64,000 nt of DNA from Siminovitchia fordii DSM 16014 = CIP 108821 (GTDB lineage: Bacteria; Bacillota; Bacilli; Bacillales; Bacillaceae_C): NCBI RefSeq assembly GCF_000374565.1, contig NZ_KB894697.1, positions 55,390-119,389 of the forward strand, written 5' to 3'. This document shows positions 3,195 through 41,580 of this stretch, one piece after another. The first letter of the stretch is position 1; each line of letters starts with the position of its first letter. A program made the position numbers and the translations under genes. The notes beneath the pieces are model-generated. The model worked only from the letters and a program-made list of their open reading frames with translations, had not been told where the DNA came from and did not search any database.

Positions 3195-3390
3195 TTTTAA
3201 CTTCATTCAGCAGAAATCTCCCACTTCTGTAAGTGGTGAGATGAATGCATATTGGTATTCCATACAGTGGGGGTTCAAACCCTGGCTGAATAAAGTCAAA
3301 GCCTCCGGCGGATGCCACAGATTTTCAGGGGAAATTTATCGAGCGGAGCTCGATAAAATCCGGGCGCAAATACGCCAAGGCGCATTTGAT
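3195..3390 (+). repeat. ~195-bp structured direct repeat, copy 1
   Basis: By hand alignment this stretch matches 8710-8904 with about 15 differences (roughly 92% identity). It contains CCACTT-CTGT-AAGTGG, a GGG-TTCAAA-CCC type hairpin, and TTTATCGAG-CGGAG-CTCGATAAA. A reading frame starting at ATG 3241 is shared by both copies, but of the 12 codons that differ about 9 change the amino acid, so protein coding is unlikely and an RNA or mobile-element end is more plausible. It ends 7 bp before the histidine kinase stop codon. Confidence 0.75.
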
Positions 3391-8709: not shown

Positions 8710-8904
8710 TTTTAACTTCATTTAGCAGAAATCTCCACTTCTGTAAGTGGTGAGATGAATGCATATTGGTATTCCATTCAGTGGGGGTTCAAACCCCGGC
8801 CGACTAAAGTTAAAGCCTCCGGCAGATACCACAGATTTTCTGAGGAAATTTATCGAGCGGAGTTCGATAAAATCTGTGCGCAAATACGCCAAGGCGAATT
8901 TGAT
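8710..8904 (+). repeat. ~195-bp structured direct repeat, copy 2
   Basis: Same orientation as copy 1 (3195-3390). Here the outer stem is intact: CACAGAT pairs with ATCTGTG around the inner stem TTTATCGAG/TTCGATAAA, where a C in copy 1 has become T and keeps pairing as G-U. GGGG-TTCAAA-CCCC is also perfect in this copy. The two copies bracket the complete two-component/ABC/YxeA module. Confidence 0.75.
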
Positions 8905-9175: not shown

Positions 9176-10516
9176 ATGGAAAGAAAAAATATTATTATTA
9201 TAGGTGCGGCAGGAAGAGATTTTCACAATTTTAATACGTATTATCGCGATAATGAGGCATATAAAGTTGTTGCTTTTACAGCGACACAAATTCCGGATAT
9301 CGATGGAAGGAAGTATCCAAGTGAATTAGCGGGTGAACTTTACCCAAATGGTATTCCCATTTATTCACAAGATCAATTACCAGAGTTGATTAAAGAATTA
9401 CAGGTGGATGAATGTGTTTTTGCGTATAGTGATATTAGTTACGAGGATGTTATGCGCGTAGGTGCGATCGTAAATGCAGCGGGTGCTAATTTCACATTGC
9501 TAGGTTCAAGCAGCACGATGTTAAAAAGTAATAAGCCGGTCATTTCGGTTTGCGCTGTGCGAACTGGAACCGGAAAAAGTCAAACGTCGCGAAAAATTAT
9601 TGAAACGCTGTTGGAGCATGATTTAAAAGTCATTGCAGTGAGACACCCGATGCCGTACGGCGATTTAAATGCACAACGTGTTCAGCGCTTTGCGACAGTA
9701 GAGGACTTAAAGAAACACAATTGTACCATCGAAGAAATGGAAGAATATGAACCACATGTGGCACGAGGAAATGTTGTGTATGCTGGCGTTGATTATGCAG
9801 ATATTTTGGCAGCAGCTGAAAATGATCCAGATGGCTGTGACGTTATTTTATGGGATGGGGGAAATAATGACTTCTCTTTCTTTGAGCCTGATTTAGCTGT
9901 TACTGTCTTGGACCCGCATCGCCCAGGTCATGAGCTGAAATACTATCCTGGCGAAGTGTGTTTAAGAACAACCGACGTGGCCATCATTAACAAAGTGGAT
10001 AGTGCATCAGACGAAGCCATTCAAACCGTAGAAAATAATATTAAATTTGCAAGTCCAAATAGCACGATTATTAAAGCTGAATCAAAGATTACCGTCGATC
10101 ATCCGGAGAGTATTATTGGAAAACGCGTGTTAGTCGTTGAAGATGGTCCGACGTTGACACATGGAGAAATGAAACTAGGTGCAGGTACAGTCGCAGCTGC
10201 ACGTTTGGGAGCGAAGGAAATCATTGACCCGCGCCCATTTGCTGTAGGTACATTAACCGAAACGTTTAATAAATACAAACATATTGAAAACGTCCTTCCA
10301 GCGATGGGATACGGCGAACAGCAATTAAAAGATCTTGAAGAAACGATTAATAAGGCTGACTGTGATGCAGTCATCATTGGGACACCAATCGATTTGACTC
10401 GCGTTATTTCAATTAATAAACCATGTACACGTGTACATTATGATTTAGATGAAATTAGTAGTCCGAATTTAAAAGATATCTTAAAAGGTTTTATCCAAGA
10501 ACATAAACTTGTATGA
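9176..10516 (+). CDS. Cyclic 2,3-diphosphoglycerate synthase-like P-loop GTPase
   Basis: A 446-residue protein of the COG2403 group, related to archaeal cyclic 2,3-diphosphoglycerate synthetase. An N-terminal Rossmann-like domain (NIIIIGAAGRDFHNFN) is followed by a P-loop around residue 130 (RTGTGKSQTSR), LWDGGNNDFSF, and NKVDS as a likely nucleotide-specificity motif. Cyclic 2,3-diphosphoglycerate is a thermoprotectant in methanogens; bacterial homologues have no established product, so the function here is open. AGGAGAG precedes the ATG. Single-gene unit with an A+T-rich promoter region (a TATAAT-like box near 9147). Confidence 0.75.
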   Translation: MERKNIIIIGAAGRDFHNFNTYYRDNEAYKVVAFTATQIPDIDGRKYPSELAGELYPNGIPIYSQDQLPELIKELQVDECVFAYSDISYEDVMRVGAIVNAAGANFTLLGSSSTMLKSNKPVISVCAVRTGTGKSQTSRKIIETLLEHDLKVIAVRHPMPYGDLNAQRVQRFATVEDLKKHNCTIEEMEEYEPHVARGNVVYAGVDYADILAAAENDPDGCDVILWDGGNNDFSFFEPDLAVTVLDPHRPGHELKYYPGEVCLRTTDVAIINKVDSASDEAIQTVENNIKFASPNSTIIKAESKITVDHPESIIGKRVLVVEDGPTLTHGEMKLGAGTVAAARLGAKEIIDPRPFAVGTLTETFNKYKHIENVLPAMGYGEQQLKDLEETINKADCDAVIIGTPIDLTRVISINKPCTRVHYDLDEISSPNLKDILKGFIQEHKLV

Positions 10517-10636
10517 TAAACATCCTGTGACTATCAAATATTCTAAAAAGGCTAGCGATCACATCATTGCTAGTCTTTTTAGATGTGAGCAAAAAAGAAA
10601 GCAAATATTGAAAAAGCCAATTCGACTCGGTTTCGT

Positions 10637-10736
10637 AACCTTATTTAGATATGTCATGGAGAACCTTACCACAAGTAAGCACAAAGTTATTTTTAGTAGA
10701 AGCGTCAAAGAACAACTCAATGTCCTTGACGCTTCT
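10637..10736 (+). repeat. 42-bp repeat family, copy B, with following hairpin
   Basis: 10637-10678 differs from copy C (14711-14752) at about four positions. A perfect 11-bp stem follows, AGAAGCGTCAA (10698) with TTGACGCTTCT (10726). The hairpin sequence differs from that after copy C although its distance is similar. Short reading frames across this stretch are not credible genes. Confidence 0.6.
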
Positions 10737-11030
10737 TTCCTCAGTGGAGTTACCTGCATATTGTGTGAGTAAGGTCCATTTGCTTTTCTGGTTCAACATG
10801 AAGGAGAACAAAATGGCACTAATCAAAAACAGCTTTGTATACCGTTGGGATAAGTACATATAAGAACCATTTTATAAATAATGAACATAAAAATAGTGAT
10901 ATAGCCATCCCTATTAGAATATTCAACGTATGAAACGTAAGAAAATCGTCCCAAACGTATGAACATCCACAAAAAAATACTAGAGAATATTAACAGTTAC
11001 CGAAAACATAGACTTAAAACGAATCAAACC

Positions 11031-12598: not shown

Positions 12599-13063
12599 TT
12601 AATATTCTCCTTTTATTACAAAAAACGAGCCCCGAATGGTTCCAGCTAGTTTGGACTTTTGCCTGGCAAACTTAAACTTCCCTTCCAGCTCTTGTGGTAT
12701 CTCCATACCCTCAGAAAGCTTAAAACCAACGGCCCGCTTTTTAGGATCATCAACCGTATACATCACGTTAACCCCAAGACCATCCTCATAAAAGACGTAG
12801 GCCATTTTGATATTCTCCACTTGAAAACGCGAAGTTTCTAAAGGTTTGGCCACAAACTCAATATCACGTTCTTCTTTTAATATTCGGTTCACATATTCAA
12901 GGGTCTCCCGGCTTTCGCTAGCTGGTACAACCGTAAATTCATGCTTGTATTTGTTCATAAAGTAACGTGCTTCATTAGCACGTAAACCAGCAAGCGCTTC
13001 TGCTACAGGTGAAGACTCCAAACCAACCGTAGATACATTTTTAAAATCTACAATAGAGGACAT
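12599..13063 (-). CDS. Conserved hypothetical protein, partner of the GyrI-like protein
   Basis: A 154-residue soluble protein with no signal or membrane segment and no family I can name. AAAGGTGG lies 7 bases before its ATG. It is 20 bp downstream of the GyrI-like gene at 13084 and surely shares its transcript. The divergent HTH/WYL regulator at 13678 probably controls both. A role tied to ligand binding or detoxification is only suggested by the neighbour. Confidence 0.7.
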   Translation of the reverse strand: MSSIVDFKNVSTVGLESSPVAEALAGLRANEARYFMNKYKHEFTVVPASESRETLEYVNRILKEERDIEFVAKPLETSRFQVENIKMAYVFYEDGLGVNVMYTVDDPKKRAVGFKLSEGMEIPQELEGKFKFARQKSKLAGTIRGSFFVIKGEY

Positions 13064-27599: not shown

Positions 27600-28544
27600 A
27601 TGGTATTGGATCTAATGGAAAAGATACTTTATATGCTTATGTTGAAAGGAGAACAATATGAACAATCTTGGAAAGTATCACAAATGCCGCCGACAGTTGA
27701 AAAATTAAAAAAATTAGAGATGGATCTTGAAAAAGAAGGGTATTCTTTAGATAGGGATTTAGGCTTTATCTTACAGTCCGATTTCTTTGCATATGATGCT
27801 ACTCCTTATGATGTCATTACGTTTGCAAGTGCCGGTTGCGATGGAATACATTTCGGCTTGCTAACTGACTTTGGAACAGTATCTGATTTAGAGATTGCTT
27901 TTGTTGTATGCATAAGTCCAATGGATTTTGGTTCACAAATAAAGATTGTTGCGAGGAATTTAAGGGAGTTTATCAGCCTAATTTGTACATTGAAAGATGC
28001 AGCAAGTGTTTCTAACTTTAATTGTTTTAACGAAGAGGAAGAATATCTGCGTCTGCTCAAAGAACTAAAACAAGAGGAAAGTGAAAATGAGGAATATGCA
28101 GAAAGGGCTAACTATGTAGTGGAAAAGATAAAAGCCACTCTTGACTGCGAAATCATTGAGGATATCTATCAGTATGTAGAAAGAAAAGTAATACCAGAAA
28201 GAGAGCAACAAATAATTTTACCAACCCTTGATGGTATAGGAATAATAGCCATGGAAAACGTCAATAGCAAGCACACTATTTACAAACTTGAAGAGGATAT
28301 AAACATTAATCTGAGTGAAGTGAAATCCTTTTTTAATCATGAATCTACAGAAAGCAAACTGGCTTTCATACGGGATGCCCAATTTACTTTCTTGATATCA
28401 AATGGGATAGAGCTAAAAGAATTAGTCATGAATGAAATGACTAAATTAGGATTAAATGATGAAGTAGATAGATTAAGGAATATAGATCAGATTGATACCC
28501 TTGAAAGTGAAAGTTTTTCTACGAGTGCTTTTTTGGAATTATAA
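27600..28544 (+). CDS. Conserved hypothetical protein (SUKH/SMI1-like region possible)
   Basis: A soluble acidic protein of up to 314 residues. The centre (YDATPYDVITFASAGCDGIHFGLLTDFG ... VCISPMDFGSQIKIVARNLREFISLICTL) looks like a SMI1/KNR4-type fold used by bacterial immunity and sensor proteins, but I cannot assign a family firmly. The best ribosome site, AAAGGAG, points at ATG 27658, which is in another frame and stops after 17 codons. A frameshift near the N terminus, natural or from sequencing, is therefore possible. Confidence 0.6.
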   Translation: MVLDLMEKILYMLMLKGEQYEQSWKVSQMPPTVEKLKKLEMDLEKEGYSLDRDLGFILQSDFFAYDATPYDVITFASAGCDGIHFGLLTDFGTVSDLEIAFVVCISPMDFGSQIKIVARNLREFISLICTLKDAASVSNFNCFNEEEEYLRLLKELKQEESENEEYAERANYVVEKIKATLDCEIIEDIYQYVERKVIPEREQQIILPTLDGIGIIAMENVNSKHTIYKLEEDININLSEVKSFFNHESTESKLAFIRDAQFTFLISNGIELKELVMNEMTKLGLNDEVDRLRNIDQIDTLESESFSTSAFLEL

Positions 28545-28750
28545 ATGTATTCTTTTCCGACATACGTGAACTTCGCCATAAGTGATGGCAAAAAATCGGT
28601 GGATTATGTCATTGTCCCTTTTTCCTGGATTTTTATATTCTTCGCGATGTTCCAAAATGAATCAATGTTATTTGGGGAAGGAAACTTGGAAAGAACTGCA
28701 AACCAGCCTTATGCAACCTCTGATAAGAATTGAGCGGAAAGGTTGAAAAA

Positions 28751-28795
28751 ATCAGCTATAACCATTCTATGAGTTAAGGTTATAGCTGATTTTAT
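28751..28795. terminator. Bidirectional terminator
   Basis: ATCAGCTATAACC pairs perfectly with GGTTATAGCTGAT, followed by TTTTAT; A-run on the other side. Confidence 0.85.
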
Positions 28796-28822
28796 ATGTC
28801 ATAATAAAAACATTATCCGCCA

Positions 28823-29362
28823 TTATTTAAAAGCAGGAATTTTTTTCAATACGATACAGACCGGAATGGCGACAGCGATACCGATGACACTTTGCAAGAT
28901 ATCTCCGGGAATGGAGGTCAATGGTACAATCCAATTGCCATATATGATGCTTTCCCAAAGATAGTAGCCGGCGATCATAGGAGGTACGGAAAGGATAATT
29001 CCTATTAGGTTGTATACAATGTTGTTTCCTTTTCGACCTTTGGACCAGGCGATTTTCCCAACGATATAGCCCTGTAAGGCGCGTGTTAAAAAAGTGATGG
29101 GCGCCCACAATGCCCAACCTGATACCAGGTCAAACAATCCCATGCCGACAGCCCCGGCGAACGCTCCCTTTTTAGGACCAAATACAATGGCTGAAATGAA
29201 GAGCATGGCCGAGCCGAGGTGAACCAGGCCACCATTTATCGAAATAGGCAGTTTAATATTTAAAAGCATGGTGGCCACGAAGACGAGTGCCGTTAGCATG
29301 GCCGTCAGAATAAGATCAAATGTTTTAGTTTTGGAGCTGGAGTAGCTTGCAGTTCTTTCCAT
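28823..29362 (-). CDS. ECF transporter S component (vitamin uptake)
   Basis: A 179-residue protein with about five or six TM segments, in the ECF substrate-binding family. Typical marks are the N-terminal LILTAMLTALVFVATMLLNIKLP, GGLVHLGSAMLFISAIVFGPKKGAFAGAVGMGLFDLVSGWALWAP, and LTRALQGYIVGKIA. It would work with a shared EcfA1A2T module encoded elsewhere; the vitamin is unknown. A perfect 7-bp hairpin lies in the leader at 29385-29405. Confidence 0.85.
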   Translation of the reverse strand: MERTASYSSSKTKTFDLILTAMLTALVFVATMLLNIKLPISINGGLVHLGSAMLFISAIVFGPKKGAFAGAVGMGLFDLVSGWALWAPITFLTRALQGYIVGKIAWSKGRKGNNIVYNLIGIILSVPPMIAGYYLWESIIYGNWIVPLTSIPGDILQSVIGIAVAIPVCIVLKKIPAFK

Positions 29363-29405: not shown

Positions 29406-29645
29406 GTTTCTTTGGATTTATTGATACTTTAGCAAATGAGTGGTCTCTTTAAAAGTGTCACTTTCTTAAAAATTAAAGGGGTCAGAATTGAGGTTAGTCA
29501 TGGAAGGACTACCAGGAACAAAATAAAGGCCTTGTTTTTCATTTTAACCAGAATAATCACAGTAAAATATTGTCATGTATGTTTCTCTGGAAAAAACTAA
29601 GAATCTTTACTAACATGTTAGGAAATCGTAAGAGGAGTGATTTAT

Positions 29646-30671
29646 GTGACGATTCTCAATCAGCAAATCATTCTAGCTGAAAGGCCTAAGGGAATGCCGG
29701 ACACCCGTACTTTTAAAATCGTAGAAAAAAATGTAGAAGAGCTGGAAAAAGGCCAAGTATTAATTAAAACCCTATTGGTTTCTGTTGACCCATACATGAG
29801 AGGCAGGATGCAGGATGAGGAATCTTACATTGAGCCTTATGAAGTCGGCCAAGTAATTGAAGGCGGAGCCATCGGAGAAGTCATTGAGTCCAAATCAGAC
29901 CAATTCAAACAAGGCGATGTGGTGATCGGCATGTTCGGCTGGCAGAAATATTATGCTGCCAATGAAAAGGAAATACGTAAGATTGATCCGTCACTTGCTC
30001 CGATATCAACACATTTAGGAATATTGGGATTGACCGGGTTGACGGCATACTTTGGTTTGCTCGACATTGGCAAGCCTAAAAAAGGTGAAACGGTGGTCAT
30101 CTCTGGAGCAGCAGGGGCTGTCGGATCCTCCGTTGGACAAATAGCAAAAATCAAAGGCGCACGGGTTGTGGGGATTGCAGGTTCCGATGAAAAAATCAGT
30201 TATTTGAAAAAGGAATTGGGTTTTGACGAAGGAATCAACTATCGAACGGTAAAAGATATGGCAAGTGAAATCAGACTCAAGTGTCCGGATGGTGTGGACG
30301 TATATTTTGATAATGTTGGAGGAGAAATCTCTGATGCTGTTTTAACCCAGTTAAATCGATTTGCACGGATCCCGGTTTGCGGAGCCATTTCTTCCTACAA
30401 TCTGGAAGAAGCGGATATCGGGCCGCGGGTACAGGGAACGCTTATTAAGAAAAGTGCATTGATGCAAGGGTTTACGGCAGGAAATTATTCAGATCGTTTC
30501 CCTGAGGGAGCGAAGCAGCTCGCCCAATGGCTGCAAGAGGGGAAACTTAAATATCGTGAAACCATTAAGGCAGGTTTTGAAAATATTCCGAGTGCCTTCT
30601 TGGATTTGTTCAAAGGAAATAATATTGGCAAGCTACTCGTAAAAGTTTCTGAGCGCCAATATGAAGATTAA
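29646..30671 (+). CDS. NADP-dependent zinc-independent MDR oxidoreductase (YfmJ/CurA-like)
   Basis: A 341-residue medium-chain reductase that reduces double bonds of enones or alkenals with NADPH in this family. Seen: SVDPYMRGRM near the N terminus, GGAIGEVIESKSDQFKQGDVV, the cofactor motif GAAGAVGSSVGQIAKIKGARVVGIAGS, YFDNVGG and PVCGAISSYN. No structural-zinc cysteines. GTG 29646 has AAGAGGAG 8 bases upstream; GTG 29637 lies within that site. Confidence 0.9.
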   Translation: MTILNQQIILAERPKGMPDTRTFKIVEKNVEELEKGQVLIKTLLVSVDPYMRGRMQDEESYIEPYEVGQVIEGGAIGEVIESKSDQFKQGDVVIGMFGWQKYYAANEKEIRKIDPSLAPISTHLGILGLTGLTAYFGLLDIGKPKKGETVVISGAAGAVGSSVGQIAKIKGARVVGIAGSDEKISYLKKELGFDEGINYRTVKDMASEIRLKCPDGVDVYFDNVGGEISDAVLTQLNRFARIPVCGAISSYNLEEADIGPRVQGTLIKKSALMQGFTAGNYSDRFPEGAKQLAQWLQEGKLKYRETIKAGFENIPSAFLDLFKGNNIGKLLVKVSERQYED

Positions 30672-34504: not shown

Positions 34505-35665
34505 ATGGATATCGTGGTAAACGAAGAAAGAGCTATCAAGTTTCTACAGGATCTTATCCAAATAGAGAGTGTCAACCCTCCGGGAAATGAACTTGGGGTA
34601 GCCGAAGCTATAGCTGGACATGTTAAAAATCCAGGGTTATCTTGTGAAATTAAACCTTTTTCCGAAAATAGAGCAAATATGATTGTTCGTTTAGAGGGAA
34701 AAGATTCAAGTCGGCCTCCGCTCATTTTCAACGGTCATCTTGATACAGTGCCAATTGGAGACAATTTATGGGAACATCCTCCTTTTTCCGGAAATATGGT
34801 GGACGGAAAAATATATGGACGGGGCGCTTGCGATATGAAAGGTGGCGTTGCTGCACTGATAGAAGCCATGATCTGTTTAAAGGAAGCAGGGGAAGAACTT
34901 GAACACGATGTAATTTTTATCGGAACCGCCGGAGAAGAAGTTGATTGCGTTGGTGCCAAAATGATGGTTGAGGAAGACATACTTAAAAAAGCAGGGGCAA
35001 TGGTAATTGCGGAGCCTAGTAATGGAAGGGTTTTCACAGCTCATAAAGGTGTATTGTGGCTTGAAATAAAACTTTTTGGAAAAACGGCCCACGCTTCCAT
35101 GCCTGACCAGGGAATAAATGCGATTATCCATATGAGTGAATTGATTGAGAGACTGAAGAAGTTTACTTTTTATGCTGAAGAGCATGGGTTGTTAGGAAAA
35201 CCATCACTTACTGTAAGTACGATAGAAGGTGGTGTAAAAACAAACGTAGTTCCCGACCAGTGTAGAATAACATTGGATATACGGACAGTTCCGGGGATGA
35301 AGCATGAAAAAATCATCCATCAAATCAGCGAATTACTGGAGGAACTCAAAGCTGAAATTAAAAACTTCCAACCTGAATTAAATGTTCTGAATAATTTGCC
35401 GGCACTTGAAAATATGAAAAACGATTCCTTTGTTCGCCTGTGCCTGGAAGTGAATCAGGAATTATATAACATGAAGCCGGAAGAAAAAGGCGCCAATTAT
35501 TATACGGATGCCTCCATTTTCTTCCCGCAGCTAAAACTTCCAACAGTTATATACGGTCCGGGCAACGAGAAGCTTGCCCATCAACCAAATGAATATGTTG
35601 AAGTAAAAAAATACATTCAAGCTATAGAGTACTATGTGGAACTTGCTAGAAGATATAGCTCTTAG
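34505..35665 (+). CDS. M20-family metallopeptidase/deacylase (ArgE/DapE-like)
   Basis: A 386-residue zinc hydrolase of the ArgE/DapE/ACY1 group, which removes acyl groups from amino acids. Metal and catalytic motifs are visible: NGHLDTVP (metal His, catalytic Asp), GRGACDMKGG (bridging Asp), GTAGEEVDCVGA (general-base Glu, metal Glu), and GPGNEKLAHQPNEYV (C-terminal metal His). The dimerisation lid has GKTAHASMPDQGINAI. Starts at GTG 34502, ATG 34505 or GTG 34514 are all possible; the last has the best spacing from AAGGTG. Substrate unknown. Confidence 0.88.
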   Translation: MDIVVNEERAIKFLQDLIQIESVNPPGNELGVAEAIAGHVKNPGLSCEIKPFSENRANMIVRLEGKDSSRPPLIFNGHLDTVPIGDNLWEHPPFSGNMVDGKIYGRGACDMKGGVAALIEAMICLKEAGEELEHDVIFIGTAGEEVDCVGAKMMVEEDILKKAGAMVIAEPSNGRVFTAHKGVLWLEIKLFGKTAHASMPDQGINAIIHMSELIERLKKFTFYAEEHGLLGKPSLTVSTIEGGVKTNVVPDQCRITLDIRTVPGMKHEKIIHQISELLEELKAEIKNFQPELNVLNNLPALENMKNDSFVRLCLEVNQELYNMKPEEKGANYYTDASIFFPQLKLPTVIYGPGNEKLAHQPNEYVEVKKYIQAIEYYVELARRYSS

Positions 35666-35703
35666 GGGTAAAATAAATATTGTGTTGAAATTCTAAACGT
35701 CGA

Positions 35704-35739
35704 AAGCAGGCTGAAATTATGTGATGTGGCCTGTTTTTT
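35704..35739 (+). terminator. Terminator after the M20 gene
   Basis: CAGGC pairs with GCCTG across a 17-base loop, followed by six T. Confidence 0.6.
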
Positions 35740-35913
35740 GTTGTGAAAAAACCAGATATATAGATGTAATCTTAAATATTACTCTCCAAAGTGGAATATT
35801 AATCAAGTTAGTTTTTAAACTTGTTGTTATAATAAGGGGTGTCCCAGCTAAGAAAGTAAATTGTCAATTAGACAAGAAGCTGGCAGCAGATTACCAAGGA
35901 GTTGCACATTCAA

Positions 35914-37089
35914 ATGAACCAAAAAGATATAGCCAACATTCGGAAACAATTCAAACTTGATAATGATTTATTACAGATCACCGATATTTTTAATGTTTAC
36001 ATAAGAAAAGAAAGCAGTGACATTTATCATCAAGAGAGCCAGCCTTTTTCCATGCTGGAGCGGGAGCAGCAGGAGCTGTTCATGAATAATTTCAAAAAGG
36101 TACTGACAGGTCAATTGGACGTGAAGTTATTTGAAGTGAAATTTCAGGATCAGGCGGAAGATCATACCCGGCATATTCTTCATGATGGTCTTCAAGCTGA
36201 TGATGTGGAAGATTGGAAGGAACAGATGCTTCTTATCGTTGAAAAAATGTTTAAGGATGTTCAGTATGAAAAGGACATGGTCGTCACTTTCATTCGCGGC
36301 GAATATTTTAAACCGACAAAAAGAAGCAGTGAGGAAGCGGAAGTGAGTGACCGGGATGAGGTGTATACAAACTCTTTTATCCTCTGCAGCATCAATCAAA
36401 CGGAGCAGCCGAAAAGAACATTGGTGTTTGATTATATTGAAAAGGAATTTAAGTCAAGCGTTGTGGTCGACTCCATTATCAATCTGGCATCTCCAAAAGC
36501 AGGATTTTTATTTCCAAGCTTCACAGACAATTCGGCTGATATAAACCGCGTACTATACTCGGCGGGAAAAGCGAATAAACCTGATGAGCACTTTATCGAG
36601 GATGTGTTGAACGGAGAAGAGATCATGACTGCCCAGGAAGACAAAGCTGTATTTGAATTTGTCGTAAATGAAGTGGTAGGTGGTCAGGTGGATACTCATA
36701 CGCTTTCCAATGTATATGAAGAAATAAACCGGATGATGGATGAAGACGAAGAGGAGGAGGAAGTCACTCCTACATTGGATTATAAAGACGTGGAACGTGT
36801 TTTAAAGGTGAGCGGAGTGGAAGACGTCAATGCGGATAAAGTTGAAATGGCCTTTCAGAAAGTTGTTGATGACGAAAAGTACGAGCTTAAGGCTAGCAGC
36901 ATTGTCCCAAAATATACATCGAAATCTATCAAAATCGAAACCAAGGTCGCAAATATTTCGATCAGCCCGAAAGACCTGAAATATGTGAGACAAGTCAACT
37001 TCAACGGCAAGCGCTGCTTAATGATTGAGGTTGATGAAGACACCATGATCGAAGGTTTTAAATTGATCCCGGAGGCATCGTTGGGATAA
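35914..37089 (+). CDS. DUF4317-family protein
   Basis: A 391-residue cytoplasmic protein of a Firmicutes family with no known function. It begins MNQKDIANIRKQFKLDNDLLQITDIFNVYI, the conserved start of the family, which sets ATG 35914; the TTG at 35902 touches the AAGGAG site. The sequence is rich in acidic residues (MDEDEEEEEV near residue 285). Its last 33 codons recur almost unchanged at 39069-39167, the border of the inserted segment that follows. Confidence 0.85.
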   Translation: MNQKDIANIRKQFKLDNDLLQITDIFNVYIRKESSDIYHQESQPFSMLEREQQELFMNNFKKVLTGQLDVKLFEVKFQDQAEDHTRHILHDGLQADDVEDWKEQMLLIVEKMFKDVQYEKDMVVTFIRGEYFKPTKRSSEEAEVSDRDEVYTNSFILCSINQTEQPKRTLVFDYIEKEFKSSVVVDSIINLASPKAGFLFPSFTDNSADINRVLYSAGKANKPDEHFIEDVLNGEEIMTAQEDKAVFEFVVNEVVGGQVDTHTLSNVYEEINRMMDEDEEEEEVTPTLDYKDVERVLKVSGVEDVNADKVEMAFQKVVDDEKYELKASSIVPKYTSKSIKIETKVANISISPKDLKYVRQVNFNGKRCLMIEVDEDTMIEGFKLIPEASLG

Positions 37090-37099
37090 AGGCCATGAA
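36991..37099 (+). repeat. Direct repeat, left copy (3' end of the DUF4317 gene)
   Basis: From CAAGTCAACTTCAACGGC to just past the stop codon, this matches 39069-39177 with about two differences; the offset is exactly 2,078 bp. It looks like the attL/attR-type duplication created when an element integrates at the 3' end of a gene. Confidence 0.8.
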
Positions 37100-37547
37100 A
37101 AACAGGGTGGTAATAATGGTTTTTAAGAACAAAAAGGGAAGGATATAAAATCAACATAACTAATTTTTAAGGGGTTTTCCCTCTCTTTCTAGAAATCCAT
37201 TATAACTGTATATTGCATTATAACCATATAAAAATTTGCAACTTGACATGGGGTCTCATTCGGCATAATTTACGGGGGCATAGAGCCAGATATTTAAAGG
37301 GACTAGCTCAGCCGTGAATGGCTATTATGCCCTCTTCCCCATGTCAAATAGTAGATTATTATCTTGTGTACTTTTTCTTAGCAATTTTATGCATTCCAGA
37401 TTGCAAAGTTATGTATTTTTAATTTGCAAAACACAATAACCATGACAAAAGTGAGGAAAAAGGTCCAATTGTTGAATAACATGACTGACGTTTTTATAAC
37501 AGCATTGTTTTTTCAAATGTCTTTATTTCCAATTAACACTAAGACAT
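37100..37547. other. Left part of the inserted islet, no protein gene
   Basis: Besides the foldable element nothing coding is seen; base composition is more A+T-rich than the DUF4317 gene. Confidence 0.4.
37243..37347 (+). ncRNA. Candidate structured RNA or DNA secondary-structure element
   Basis: Three nested perfect stems: TTGACATGGGG/CCCCATGTCAA (37243-37253 with 37337-37347), GGGCATA/TATGCCC (37276-37282 with 37326-37332) and AGCCA/TGGCT (37284-37288 with 37319-37323). The 22-base bulge on the left includes CATTCGGC (37257-37264), which is complementary to GCC..GAATG in the apical part (37311-37320), giving an alternative pairing that competes with the third stem. No known RNA family was recognised. 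Strand is arbitrary since the stems exist on both. Confidence 0.5.
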
Positions 37548-37578
37548 AAAAAAACCTATCATTCAAGTGGAATGATAG
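37548..37578 (-). terminator. Terminator of the islet operon (minus strand)
   Basis: CTATCATTC/GAATGATAG perfect 9-bp stem; on the minus strand it is followed by a run of seven T. Confidence 0.85.
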
Positions 37579-37645
37579 AAAAAGTCTTTAATTTGATAAG
37601 TCGTAAAATATTGTACACAATATACGGAAGGTCCATTAAAAAATT

Positions 37646-37834
37646 CTACATTTTTTCATAAATCGCAACTGCTATAGTTGTTAACCCCACAATGATAGCG
37701 AATGGCATAGACATTGCTGAATGAAACTCAGGGATATATCCTTTTTGATATACTATTATTAAACATATGATCGAACTAACCAAAATACTAATCAATAACC
37801 ATCTAACCCAATTAAACTGCATTTTATTATTCAT
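37646..37834 (-). CDS. Small two-TM membrane protein of the islet
   Basis: A 62-residue protein with two hydrophobic segments (about 10-29 and 38-58). It lies 11 bp after the secreted-protein gene and shares its transcript and terminator. Size and topology recall immunity or accessory proteins, but there is no sequence match I recognise. Its role with the secreted partner is inferred from gene order only. Confidence 0.6.
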   Translation of the reverse strand: MNNKMQFNWVRWLLISILVSSIICLIIVYQKGYIPEFHSAMSMPFAIIVGLTTIAVAIYEKM

Positions 37835-37845
37835 GTACAGGTTGC

Positions 37846-38535
37846 CTACTTTCTATCAACTGAATAATATTTAATAGCTGGTTTACCTACCTCGCCATAA
37901 TAAGTTTTTTTCCATAGTACTCCGTCCCAATTCGATCTGTGCTCACGAATAATTTTAACCTTATGAGTGTGTCTGCCCTTTTTATAATAAAAATCTCTAC
38001 TAGAATAACCCTTACCTGGTCCAGATAAAGTTACCTTTACTGTTACTTTTTTGGAACCGCTTGAAGTAAGTCCAAATGATTTGTTCACAGAAGGTTTGGA
38101 AGCACTTGGAATTCCACTGCTGTATGTAGCTGAGATGGTTGCTGAAACTTCTGTAGTCTTTTCATACGTCATCCCTCTTGCTACACTTCTAATAAAATAA
38201 GGGTTAGACAAATAAGACCAGTGTTTTACTATTCCTTGGTCATACACATACCATCTATCGTATTCATAATAAGCACGTTGGGGAGTAATTGAGCCATTGC
38301 TACTAGGTGCTTGATTCACAGAATCATAATAACCTAATAAGACTTCCTGGCTTCCGTTTCTATCTATTTTCACTGGCTCATCATATTCAATATAGTTATA
38401 CCCTTCAAGAGCATCACCTGTAAGAGTTTCAATTTCCGCAATTGGGAATTCACCGGATCCTTCAACCTCTTCCGCTTGAGCGTTTGGAATACATAAAAAC
38501 ATAATAACGAATAATGCTGTAATAAGCTTTTTCAT
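37846..38535 (-). CDS. Secreted hypothetical protein of the islet
   Basis: A 229-residue exported protein: signal peptide MKKLITALFVIMFLCIPNAQA with probable cleavage after AQA, then a mature domain rich in Ser, Tyr and Lys (SATISATYSSGIPSASKPSVNKSFGLTSSGSKKVTVKVTLSG), ending in a basic, aromatic tail. No cysteines in the mature part. The alternating pattern suggests a beta-rich fold. It is first of a two-gene operon inside the 2-kb segment bounded by the DUF4317 repeat. A bacteriocin-like or surface role is possible but unproven. Confidence 0.7.
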   Translation of the reverse strand: MKKLITALFVIMFLCIPNAQAEEVEGSGEFPIAEIETLTGDALEGYNYIEYDEPVKIDRNGSQEVLLGYYDSVNQAPSSNGSITPQRAYYEYDRWYVYDQGIVKHWSYLSNPYFIRSVARGMTYEKTTEVSATISATYSSGIPSASKPSVNKSFGLTSSGSKKVTVKVTLSGPGKGYSSRDFYYKKGRHTHKVKIIREHRSNWDGVLWKKTYYGEVGKPAIKYYSVDRK

Positions 38536-39036
38536 TATTTTACCCCCCTACTCAAATTGAATTGGTCAAACGTCTTTCTCACTGTTTGGCTGTCGAAAAA
38601 ATGTTAACAATTTACAGAATTTCCACTCGATTTAGAATCCAACTCCTCATACAATTTATTAATACTGTTTTTCTCGGAGATTTACTTTATAAGGTTAGTT
38701 CCAAAGGGACGATCTTTAAAAATCTCACCCTTTGAACCGTAAAATATTACAATCTCAATAACCTCTCTATATGGTACTAAGAATTGCCGAACGCCTTTTT
38801 TAGTGAGAACCTATATAATTATTAATTATGACTTCCAATATTTCGGAATTTTTAATATTGTACAATTTTATTTGTTTGTACACAAGCCTAAACTAGAATT
38901 TCTATATAATCACAACGAACTATTTTTTTTATTATATGCTCCCATCCGATTTTTATTTAACTAAAGTTTCGGATATGATAAATAAACTTCAATATTTGGC
39001 ATTACAGGGATAGTGCACAAGCTACACCAAACATTT
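38536..39036. other. Right part of the inserted islet
   Basis: About 500 bp of A+T-rich sequence with the promoter region of the secreted-protein gene; no integrase, transposase or other gene found. Confidence 0.4.
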
Positions 39037-39177
39037 CTACCAGTCTCAAAGACTTAGAGTACGTCATCCAAGTCAACTTCAACGGCAAGCGCTGCTTAAT
39101 GATTGAGGTTGATGAAGACACCATGATCGAAGGCTTTAAATTGATCCCGGAGGCATCGTTGGGATAAAGGCAATGAA
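39037..39177 (+). pseudogene. Truncated second 3' end of a DUF4317 gene (right repeat copy)
   Basis: Reads ISTSLKDLEYVIQVNFNGKR ... to the same final EASLG and stop. From 39069 it is nearly identical to 36991-37099, but upstream (39037-39068) it stays similar in protein while differing in DNA, as an allele from another strain would. That is the expected scar when an element brings its own gene end. Confidence 0.8.
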
Positions 39178-39356
39178 GATTAAGCGAAATTCATAAATAA
39201 TGTGGAACAGCTGAACCAATTGGGATTAATGTTGAAAGCTTTACTATCAAGATCAGCATAGAATCTATCAGTTAAACCCGAAAAATGGATAGTCAGTCAT
39301 TTTTAACGGAATCTGTTTACAACCATTGTTAAGTATGGAATAGAGTATATAAAAAT
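39178..39356. other. Spacer between islet and next operon
   Basis: No feature seen before the terminator at 39357. Confidence 0.3.
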
Positions 39357-39383
39357 AGGGAATCCCGCTGGCAGGGGTTCCCT
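39357..39383 (-). terminator. Terminator of the ECF sigma/TPR operon
   Basis: AGGGAATCCC pairs with GGGGTTCCCT; on the minus strand TATTTTTA follows. Confidence 0.75.
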
Positions 39384-41580
39384 AATTCACATCCTTCACC
39401 GCCTCGATAAATTTCTTCATCGCTGGTTTATCAGTTGTTTTCATCCAAATGGACAGGTCTTTATCTCTGTTTTTAAAATATAAATCGAGTGTTTCTTTTA
39501 GTTCCTGACGATAGAGGGGATCTGTTTCACTTTCCTCTTCAAGTGCTTGAACCATGTAAAACCAATCCCTATTTTCGTCGGCAAAAGGCCGTTCCGGATA
39601 CTCCTTTGCCATGGCCATGGCATGTTCGAATGTCTTTCCTTCATATAATTCCACCGCCAGCCAGCTTCCAATAAAACGATGGCTTTTATCCCGGTTCATT
39701 ACTTGTTTAAAACGTTCGCTTGCTTCCTTTAATTTTCCTTGCTTCATTAGTGCACTGGCGTAAATGGCTTGATCGTAGTCATCAAGGCGGCCATCAACCG
39801 CTGCAGCATACTTATCAAACCATTTGTTGAAGGAATCCCATTTCTGTTTCTCATAATAATATTCAACAAGCCTGAATATGGCTTGTGGAGAGTTTGCTTT
39901 TTCGGCATATGCTTGTAAATAAGGAATACCTTTTTCATTCTCGGTTGCATGCTTGTCGGATGATTCAGCACCCATCAGCCGAACAATCATACGTAAACTA
40001 TGAATGTCATTCGGATTCTTTTCATAATTAGATTGATAGGCTGCCAGTGCTTTTTTTAATTTTTTATCAAGCAATAGTCGGTCTGCTTTCGTCATGTTTC
40101 GTTCCTTTAAATAAAAGAAAGGTATTTTTCCAACCGTATCTTCATTCAGCCGGTAACCGTCACTGCGTGAAATCAGCTCACCATCATCGCTATAGGCCTC
40201 AACAGACCAATAAAACCGGTTATTCGTATTTGTAAATGCCAACAGTGATTCTGGGCTTACCGTAGACAGATCATCACCAGGGAATATTACTCCAAGCGGA
40301 TGATTATATACCTCTTCCACCGGCACTTTGATTTGATTGTCTGCAATGTATGATTTAAATCCCGTACTGACCGAGCCGGAATCAATATCTGCTCCCAAGC
40401 TTAGCTGGTAATAGTCTGCGCCCTCCACCTTTTCCCAGGAAAAGAGAATCTGTTTATCAGTTATTTTTTGTTGATTGACTGGAGAGTTGAGTTTGATCAA
40501 TTTTTGCAAGGTGATGTTATAAGTGATTGTTTTCTTTTCTCCAACATCAAGCCATTCATCCATATCAACCGGCCATGTCCAGCCGTCAATTTGATCAAAG
40601 CTTAATCCTAAAGCGACTTGATAGCTTCCTGGCAATACCCCTGAAATTTCGAAATATCCATCCGCGTCTGTTGTGACTTGATATGCTTCCTCCGGTCCAA
40701 CACTTCTGGAGACTTTTTCTTCTGACCGTAAAAAGACCCCTGCATTCGCTACGGGCGTACCATCACTGTAAACAATTCTTCCTTTGACCGTATTATTTAT
40801 ATGGCTTTGTTGTGTTAAGGCAGTTTGTATATTTTTTTTCATAGATAAAAGTTCTTCATAACCAGCGGGTGTTTCATCTGCCATCATTTCTTCATACTTC
40901 GTTAATGCTTTGTTAACTTCCTTGTAAGCATCCAGTACATGACCTTGGCGGAGTTTGATTTTCGCTTTCTGCTGGGCTATTTTTGCTTGGACATATTCAT
41001 TTTCCGGGTCATTGCTACTCATTTCTTGTAAAAGTTGCTTGGCTGCCGAATAATCGGACTGTTCAATAAAGATTTCCGATTGTTCTAATTGAAACTCCTG
41101 ACCTGTCCATGAATCGTTACCAGCTGTGCGTTTGCTGGCTTTTTGCAGGATGTCCTGTGCTTTGTCAACTTGGCCAATAGTCTTATAATGAACCGCAAGC
41201 TGTTTTGCCGCAAAAGCAAAATACTCATCTATCGGGCCTTTTTTTACATACATGTTCAAATATGGAAGCATTTCATCCCAAGTAAAAGTTATGGCATGAT
41301 CAGGATGGCTGAATTGGGAAAACGCTGGCCCGACGTATACATCAAATTGGTTGGCCGTGTAATCGTTCAGAATATAGTCCTGGATGATTCTCCATTTTTG
41401 CGAGTCCAAAATCGTTTTGCTGTCAAGGGATTCCAACAGCTTTGTCTTGGCTGCAGGATTGGTATTCCCCGCTTGCTTTTTCGCTATATATAGTTGAATT
41501 TGAGGGCTTATGAAAAAAACTATCAATAGGATACTAATTAAAATAAAGACAATATGCTTCACTTTCATTTTAATCTTCAT
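39382..41580 (-). CDS. Membrane-anchored TPR protein with carboxypeptidase regulatory-like domain
   Basis: A 732-residue extracytoplasmic protein with one N-terminal TM anchor (residues about 8-25). Residues 100-260 are TPR-like helical repeats (FAAKQLAVHYKTIGQVDKAQDILQKA). About 265-360 is a CnaB/carboxypeptidase-regulatory fold (VKGRIVYSDGTPVANAGVFLRS, TTDADGYFEISGVLPGSYQVAL), then a fibronectin-like segment, then more TPRs (LKKALAAYQSNYEKNPNDIHSLRM). Such proteins scaffold or sense cell-wall structures. It overlaps the 110-residue gene by 11 bp and is the last gene of an ECF sigma operon, so it is likely the effector or sensor of that pathway. Confidence 0.8.
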   Translation of the reverse strand: MKIKMKVKHIVFILISILLIVFFISPQIQLYIAKKQAGNTNPAAKTKLLESLDSKTILDSQKWRIIQDYILNDYTANQFDVYVGPAFSQFSHPDHAITFTWDEMLPYLNMYVKKGPIDEYFAFAAKQLAVHYKTIGQVDKAQDILQKASKRTAGNDSWTGQEFQLEQSEIFIEQSDYSAAKQLLQEMSSNDPENEYVQAKIAQQKAKIKLRQGHVLDAYKEVNKALTKYEEMMADETPAGYEELLSMKKNIQTALTQQSHINNTVKGRIVYSDGTPVANAGVFLRSEEKVSRSVGPEEAYQVTTDADGYFEISGVLPGSYQVALGLSFDQIDGWTWPVDMDEWLDVGEKKTITYNITLQKLIKLNSPVNQQKITDKQILFSWEKVEGADYYQLSLGADIDSGSVSTGFKSYIADNQIKVPVEEVYNHPLGVIFPGDDLSTVSPESLLAFTNTNNRFYWSVEAYSDDGELISRSDGYRLNEDTVGKIPFFYLKERNMTKADRLLLDKKLKKALAAYQSNYEKNPNDIHSLRMIVRLMGAESSDKHATENEKGIPYLQAYAEKANSPQAIFRLVEYYYEKQKWDSFNKWFDKYAAAVDGRLDDYDQAIYASALMKQGKLKEASERFKQVMNRDKSHRFIGSWLAVELYEGKTFEHAMAMAKEYPERPFADENRDWFYMVQALEEESETDPLYRQELKETLDLYFKNRDKDLSIWMKTTDKPAMKKFIEAVKDVN

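What the first reader, a model, noticed from the sequence alone, without database searches (positions are those of the whole stretch)
36991..39177. A 2.1-kb islet inserted at the 3' end of a DUF4317 gene
The last ~107 bp of the DUF4317 gene recur 2,078 bp downstream with only one or two differences. Just upstream of the identical core the right copy keeps the protein sequence but differs in DNA, as if it came from another strain. This is the scar left by integration at a gene end. Between the copies lie a secreted protein, a two-TM protein and a foldable element, and no integrase. It may be a non-autonomous element or a relic mobilised in trans.
Basis: partly seen in the sequence, partly recalled or inferred. 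Interest (0 to 1): 0.72.

Follow-up and report, generated by a model that had tools for sequence, protein, structure and literature searches.

The report
Gene-swap scar beside DUF4317 gene
A two-gene cassette lies between a complete bacterial gene and a 150-base stump of that same gene's end, a scar likely left when DNA from a related strain was swapped in here without any dedicated insertion enzyme.

Summary
The DUF4317 gene end (36950-37099) recurs 2,078 bp downstream (39028-39177). The last 109 bp differ at 2 sites; the first 41 bp differ at 14. Between the copies lie a secreted protein, a 2-TM protein and a foldable stretch, and no integrase-like gene. The att-site reading is only partly supported. 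A sister genome (G003) carries the same islet at the same place without a second DUF4317 end. No other short DUF4317 end fragment occurs among 121 DUF4317-bearing genomes of 299 searched. In G003 the last 640 bp of DUF4317 hold 25 of 39 differences from its near relative G002: a homologous-exchange tract running into the islet. After the window's repeat comes a decayed piece of the gene that follows DUF4317 in G004. So the repeat is most likely the stump of a displaced arrangement, left by recombination homologous at one end and illegitimate at the other, then likely re-copied over 109 bp by gene conversion. The secreted/small-membrane pair recurs in 13 of 13 loci examined. Duplicated gene ends enclose it in three, one (argD, G112) with the window's geometry. 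The secreted protein weakly resembles aerolysin-type pore formers.

The parts
35902..37089 (+). intact DUF4317 gene, likely the homologous anchor
   Evidence: Pfam PF14199 E 2.5e-109; present in 6 of 6 genus genomes
36991..37099 (+). left copy of the near-identical 109-bp gene end, including 10 bp past the stop
   Evidence: 2 differences from 39069-39177
37223..37367 (+). foldable intergenic stretch, function unknown; one match in this genome, also in G003 at the same place
   Evidence: RNA fold z -3.97; genus search; no Rfam match up to E 1
37646..37834 (-). 62-aa protein with two hydrophobic stretches, partner of the secreted protein, possible immunity protein (inferred)
   Evidence: 94.2% DNA identity to G003
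37846..38535 (-). 229-aa secreted protein (signal peptide by sequence look) with predicted long beta strands, weak aerolysin-like resemblance
   Evidence: 44 homologues; model pLDDT 72.7; fold searches; 97.5% DNA identity to G003
38546..39027 (.). right part of the islet, no listed gene of note; two pieces (38545-38635, 38841-38945) shared with G003, nothing matched in G003 after that
39028..39177 (+). DUF4317 3'-end stump: 39028-39068 diverged/decayed, 39069-39177 near-identical to the intact gene (likely gene conversion)
39203..39361 (+). decayed 3' end of the gene that directly follows DUF4317 in G004
   Evidence: 73% over 179 columns, E 1.6e-16; the G004 ORF is 28344-28862 of the oriented G004 region
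39382..41580 (-). conserved right flank, TPR-repeat protein
   Evidence: region matched in 5 of 6 genus genomes

Best explanation
The islet is likely a swapped-in gene cassette and not an integrase-made element: incoming DNA probably recombined by homology through the DUF4317 gene, its far end was probably joined illegitimately inside the resident copy, and 39028-39177 is likely the surviving stump of the displaced resident DUF4317 end. Shown: both repeat copies; the decayed neighbour-gene piece right after the stump; the islet at the same site in G003 without a stump; a run of excess differences in G003 that starts inside DUF4317 and leads into the islet; a sharp rise to 92-100% identity over the two-gene pair between species whose DUF4317 genes are 84.7% identical. 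Inferred: that the window's own event was homologous at one end only (homology-facilitated illegitimate recombination); that the stump is old and decayed; that its last 109 bp were later overwritten from the intact gene by gene conversion, since the first part of the stump is about a third different while the end differs at 2 sites; that what is selected is the secreted/2-TM pair, perhaps a killing protein with its immunity partner.
For: G003 carries the islet with no second DUF4317 end. G003 against G002: 14 differences in the 3,159 positions before 12600 and 25 in the 640 positions from there to the DUF4317 stop, P 4.3e-11 (breakpoint chosen by looking, four trial points gave 1e-5 to 4e-11). 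Window 39203-39361 matches the 3' end of the G004 ORF that starts 16 bp after the DUF4317 stop there. The stump's upstream part breaks residues that are otherwise kept in 51 rows. Differences between the copies are clustered, while relatives against the left copy show no such step (81-86% in the upstream part, 74-89% in the core). Pair identity 94.2-97.5%, against 73-86% on its left, 82% and 91% in two pieces on its right and 84.7% in DUF4317. The space downstream of DUF4317 holds different DNA among the genus genomes compared. The same displacement logic is proposed for Vibrio effector modules (PMC5361080, section 13 read).
Against: No strain of the window's own species was available, so neither the pre-event locus nor the direction of copying is seen. 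What G003 shows is ordinary homologous exchange; that the window's far junction was illegitimate is inferred. The neighbour gene has no match in G001, G002, G003 or G005 and occurs in two genomes of other genera, so it may itself be a latecomer beside DUF4317; its remnant in the window was not found at protein level. The stump's 10 bases after the stop resemble the left copy, not G004. A single crossover with a circular DNA would leave the same final order. Recurrence of the geometry in G112 could mean that the cassette has some preference for gene ends.
Confidence: 0.58

Rival explanations
1. Non-autonomous integrative element: a circle carrying the islet and a DUF4317 end fragment integrated at the gene end with a recombinase supplied in trans, leaving the two copies as attL and attR.
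For: Near-identical 109-bp cores at both ends; no integrase-like ORF inside; the same pair lies between argD and a 469-bp copy of its 3' end in G112; tyrosine-recombinase-like ORFs (by sequence look) beside the pair in L010 and, in pieces, in L107.
Against: G003 has the islet without the right copy; no other short DUF4317 end fragment among 121 positive genomes of 299; DUF4317 lies beside the pair only in the window and G003, of 13 loci, and nine of the 13 have no repeat enclosing the whole pair in the stretch held; homology reaches upstream of the core in the right copy, which a gene-end att site does not need; no relative of DUF4317 in viral contigs.
Confidence: 0.16
2. Single crossover (Campbell type) with a circular DNA that carried the islet and a partly decayed DUF4317 3' fragment; RecA alone did it.
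For: Gives the same order (full gene, cargo, 5'-truncated copy) and would put the diverged 41 bp and the near-identical 109 bp where they are; compatible with the neighbour-gene remnant on the right.
Against: Needs a circle whose gene fragment matches this host at 107 of 109 bases but is about a third different just upstream; no plasmid or phage record of the collections searched carries the secreted gene.
Confidence: 0.15
3. Ordinary tandem duplication of the DUF4317 locus whose second copy shrank to its end, with the islet arriving separately between the copies.
For: The stump is decayed and 5'-truncated; full-length second copies of DUF4317 exist in two of 299 genomes (G103, G189).
Against: The two copies are followed by different DNA; none of five genus mates has a second copy.
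Confidence: 0.1

Closest known systems
Displaced effector/immunity modules of the Vibrio cholerae type VI clusters (PMC5361080; section 13 read, further passages)
   Same: Conserved anchor, variable downstream cassette, old 3' end or old neighbour pushed behind the new cassette; homology-facilitated illegitimate recombination proposed there
   Different: Here the anchor is a DUF4317 gene of a Gram-positive, the stump is of the anchor itself, its end was likely re-copied, and the cassette is an unnamed secreted/2-TM pair
Integrative elements at 3' ends of protein genes, e.g. prophage e14 in icd (recalled, from no call)
   Same: Gene end duplicated on both sides of cargo, gene kept intact
   Different: No integrase-like ORF between the copies, a sister genome with the cargo but no second end, no recurrent use of this gene end in the genomes searched
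Aerolysin-type beta-pore-forming proteins (family grouping recalled)

Membership tests
Site-specific integrative element at a gene 3' end | Empty and filled sites differ exactly by the unit between the two cores | tested here: not met
   G003 is filled without the second core; G001, G004 and G005 hold other DNA after DUF4317. No strain of the same species was available
Site-specific integrative element at a gene 3' end | Own recombinase inside the unit | tested here: not met
   No such ORF between the copies (Pfam on the two genes); of the rows shown, whose list is cut, none lies on contig C13
Site-specific integrative element at a gene 3' end | Same target gene end used repeatedly | tested here: not met
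   Only this genome has a short DUF4317 end: 121 of 299 order genomes and 22 of 34 family genomes with a match, one genome per species
Site-specific integrative element at a gene 3' end | Excision as a circle | not testable with these tools
   Needs reads or PCR
Cassette displacement by homology-facilitated illegitimate recombination | Homologous anchor at one end | tested here: inconclusive
   Seen for the sister genome G003, where the tract starts inside DUF4317 (P 4.3e-11 at a chosen breakpoint); for the window's own event inferred
Cassette displacement by homology-facilitated illegitimate recombination | Displaced resident sequence kept behind the new cassette | tested here: met
   Stump plus decayed neighbour-gene piece
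Cassette displacement by homology-facilitated illegitimate recombination | Non-homologous far junction | tested here: inconclusive
   Homology of the stump to the gene ends at about 39028, but the parental sequences are unknown
Aerolysin-type beta-pore-forming protein | Fold | tested here: inconclusive
Toxin-immunity pair | Partner protects against the secreted protein | not testable with these tools
   Only gene linkage seen: a 58-77-aa ORF downstream in 13 of 13 loci, with two hydrophobic stretches in 12 and one in L103

The most novel reading that the evidence does not exclude
The secreted/2-TM pair is a small killing-and-immunity cassette with no recombinase of its own that repeatedly lodges behind genes reading toward it and leaves behind a second copy of that gene's end (DUF4317 here, argD in G112). 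The duplicated ends would also let the cassette be lost cleanly by ordinary recombination while restoring the gene: a self-healing way of carrying a bacterial weapon at gene ends.
Probability: 0.13. Interest if true: 0.75.

Novelty: new member of a known kind. Interest (0 to 1): 0.42.

Why it matters
It shows, in a Gram-positive chromosome, how a conserved gene can serve as the docking point for swapping small cargo, and how the stump left behind may be re-copied until it imitates an integrase att site. Such look-alikes would be called integrative elements by repeat-based scans. It also brings out an unnamed secreted/2-TM gene pair, scattered over Bacillota, with a weak pore-former resemblance, which can be tested directly.

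Tried and rejected
Rfam on 35500-40500: no match up to E 1. No tRNA or tmRNA in the window. DUF4317 and the secreted protein in viral contigs: no relatives; secreted protein in the plasmid and phage collections: no match. The 61-aa stump ORF as a protein query: no candidate. NCBIfam and Pfam for the pair and for the G004 neighbour gene: nothing above the cut-offs. PF00589 in 34 family genomes: the list of matches was cut, so it only shows that no listed match lies within 20 kb of a DUF4317 place (compared by eye). Alignment searches for more pair loci: matches in 5 of 398 (class), 1 of 398 (phylum, the window's own) and 5 of 397 genomes (order). Literature: no held paper names DUF4317; a search for 'minimal efficient processing segment' with Bacillus subtilis found none.

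Background of repeats enclosing a point: in 393,660 bases, 6.7% of positions lie between direct repeats of 100 bp or more, 80% or better and 0.3-6 kb apart. Most of this comes from a dispersed ~195-bp repeat and from the pair loci themselves. Two further pair loci out of 12 inside such repeats is therefore suggestive, not decisive. The secreted gene is broken or cut in 4 of 13 loci (L014, L015, L100, L107) and the small membrane gene in none that I could see; this fits an immunity role, but the longer gene is the larger target, so it proves nothing. A global alignment of the stump's right side with G004 did not place the neighbour remnant; the local matches did.

Confidence in the best explanation went from 0.60 to 0.58 because G003 shows plain homologous exchange and the illegitimate end is inferred only; the share of the element reading went from 0.15 to 0.16.
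Full report
What is there. The end of the DUF4317 gene (36950-37099) recurs at 39028-39177. The two copies differ at 16 of 150 columns; 14 of these lie in the first 41 columns and 2 in the last 109. The hypergeometric P for that split is 1.6e-7, with the split chosen after looking; a split-free permutation test on the longest identical run (65 bp) gave 194 of 200,000. The genus relatives do not show such a step: against the left copy they are 81-86% in the upstream part and 74-89% in the core. At the two differing core sites, each copy has the commoner relatives' base once, so each seems to have one change of its own and the near-identity is recent. Homology of the right copy to the gene stops at about 39028.

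The right copy is a decayed stump. Its upstream part reads NISTSLKDLEYVIQV. Residues T, L and I at three positions occur in none of 51 rows (48 distinct places, left copy included; only those places that were laid as loci were examined); the L replaces a proline present in all 51. It is therefore less like a working allele of another strain than like a relic that has lost constraint.

What follows the stump. Window 39203-39361 matches, at 73% over 179 columns (E 1.6e-16), the 3' end of an ORF that begins 16 bp after the DUF4317 stop in G004 (172 aa as listed; I used a 155-aa form with a later start as query). G002 keeps the leader of that ORF but not its body (read). So the right copy and what follows it look like the rest of a DUF4317-neighbour arrangement. 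Against this: the neighbour has no match in G001, G002, G003 or G005 and the window remnant was not found at protein level. Homologues occur in two genomes of other genera, and a further decayed copy lies at G000:C1:28203-28438.

The islet in relatives. Five genus mates were compared. G001, G004 and G005 have other DNA after DUF4317; G002's contig ends 284 bases after the stop without islet sequence, and no secreted gene was found in G002. G003 has the foldable stretch, the 2-TM gene and the secreted gene at the same place; its contig has the same length and gene as a record of Bacillus sp. HF117_J1_D. That contig breaks in what looks like a transposase gene just upstream of the secreted gene. 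Another contig starts with sequence of the same look and then islet sequence matching up to window 38945, then a small membrane gene and the TPR gene, with no second DUF4317 end. That these two contigs adjoin is my inference.

How the cassette moved in G003. Against G002, G003 is 99-100% identical over the left flank until about position 12600 of its contig. The 3,159 positions before it hold 14 differences; the 640 positions from there to the DUF4317 stop hold 25 (P 4.3e-11; the breakpoint was chosen by looking, and four trial points gave 1e-5 to 4e-11). The imported tract thus begins inside DUF4317: homologous recombination with this gene as an anchor. The right flank is also mosaic, 86-98% against G002 up to the end of the aligned part. 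Between window and G003, identity in 60-bp steps is 63-88% from the stop to 37649 and 92-100% from 37650 to the G003 break at 38545, while the DUF4317 genes are 84.7% identical. The two-gene pair itself was thus likely exchanged recently, on top of an older shared islet.

Mechanism. The most economical account for the window is an incoming DUF4317-islet segment joined by homology on the gene side and without homology on the other, inside the resident DUF4317 end. This would leave stump and neighbour behind; both decayed, and the last 109 bp of the stump were later overwritten from the intact gene. The first part is the process proposed for Vibrio cholerae effector modules (PMC5361080, section 13 read, further passages). 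That section also says the process is rare, several orders of magnitude below regular homologous recombination. [quoted passage not shown] coli (PMC3240628, abstract start in a search listing). The gene conversion step is my inference. A consequence, also inferred: recombination between the two 109-bp copies would remove the islet and leave an intact DUF4317 gene.

Is the gene end a recurrent target? Among 299 order genomes, 121 have the gene end; the only short extra copy is the window's, and G103 and G189 have two full-length copies. Among 34 family genomes, 22 have it, and again only the window's genome has a fragment. So the DUF4317 end is not a common integration site in this sample of one genome per species.

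The pair elsewhere. I examined 13 loci: the window, L009 (=G003), L010 (=L108), L011-L015, L100 (G112), L101 (G677), L102 (G444), L103 (G124, a distant match, E 1.8e-9) and L107 (G158). A 58-77-aa ORF lies downstream of the secreted gene in 13 of 13 (in L014 beyond what looks like an insertion sequence, in L015 in an ORF run together with the end of the broken secreted gene); 12 show two hydrophobic stretches and L103 one. The secreted gene is broken or cut in four (L014, L015, L100, L107). DUF4317 is found beside the pair in the window and L009 only.

Direct repeats enclose the pair in three. These are the window; G112, where a 469-bp copy of the argD end (94.9%) lies beyond the pair in the same geometry (full gene, then the 2-TM gene and a secreted remnant reading toward it, then the stump; argD named by sequence look and operon context); and L011, where a response-regulator end is repeated but the truncated copy comes first. 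L012 has a 51-bp repeat next to, not around, the pair. The other nine have none that encloses the whole pair in the stretches held; of these, L015 has a weak 150-bp repeat (73%) with one copy inside the broken secreted gene, and L103 has a 149-bp repeat just downstream of the pair.

Verdict. The repeat is real; the att-site reading is partly supported. The best reading is cassette exchange at a conserved gene with a displaced, re-copied stump. It is a known kind of process in a new place with an unnamed gene pair.

Noticed in passing
L100 (G112) 9428-9896 and 10487-10955: A decayed secreted gene and an intact 2-TM gene lie between a full argD gene (named by sequence look) and a 469-bp, 94.9% copy of its 3' end and downstream region, the same geometry as in the window.
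   Followed up: partly
L011 4834-5518 and 9373-10110: The secreted/2-TM pair sits in front of agr-like genes (histidine kinase, AgrB-like, LytTR-like regulator, named from recall by sequence look) and the regulator's 3' end is repeated upstream of the pair.
   Followed up: partly
window 3195-3390 and 8710-8904: A ~195-bp repeat, 92% between copies, with several copies at 82-95% in the G004 and G002 stretches fetched: a dispersed repeat of this genus.
   Followed up: no
L010 4350-5468; L107 8788-9039 and 10774-11229: Tyrosine-recombinase-like ORFs (by sequence look) beside the secreted/2-TM pair: complete in L010, in two pieces around the pair in L107; only one piece matches the L010 protein, weakly (E 5e-4).
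   Followed up: partly
G003:C41 end (L021 14730-15323) and C61 start (L034 1-200): A transposase-like gene (by sequence look) seems to be inserted just upstream of the secreted gene in G003, splitting the islet over two contigs.
   Followed up: no
L018 (G001), oriented 9525-10198; window 29637-30671: An oxidoreductase gene lies left of ahpF in the window but between DUF4317 and the TPR gene in G001, at lower identity (79-80%) than its surroundings: another sign of gene shuffling at this spot.
   Followed up: no
window 37223-37367: Foldable stretch with long inverted arms (z -3.97), one match in this genome, 82% in G003, 49 bp of it also at G002:C94:5036-5084; role unknown.
   Followed up: partly
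G000:C1:28203-28438: A second decayed relative of the neighbour gene, with stops inside, elsewhere in the window's genome.
   Followed up: no
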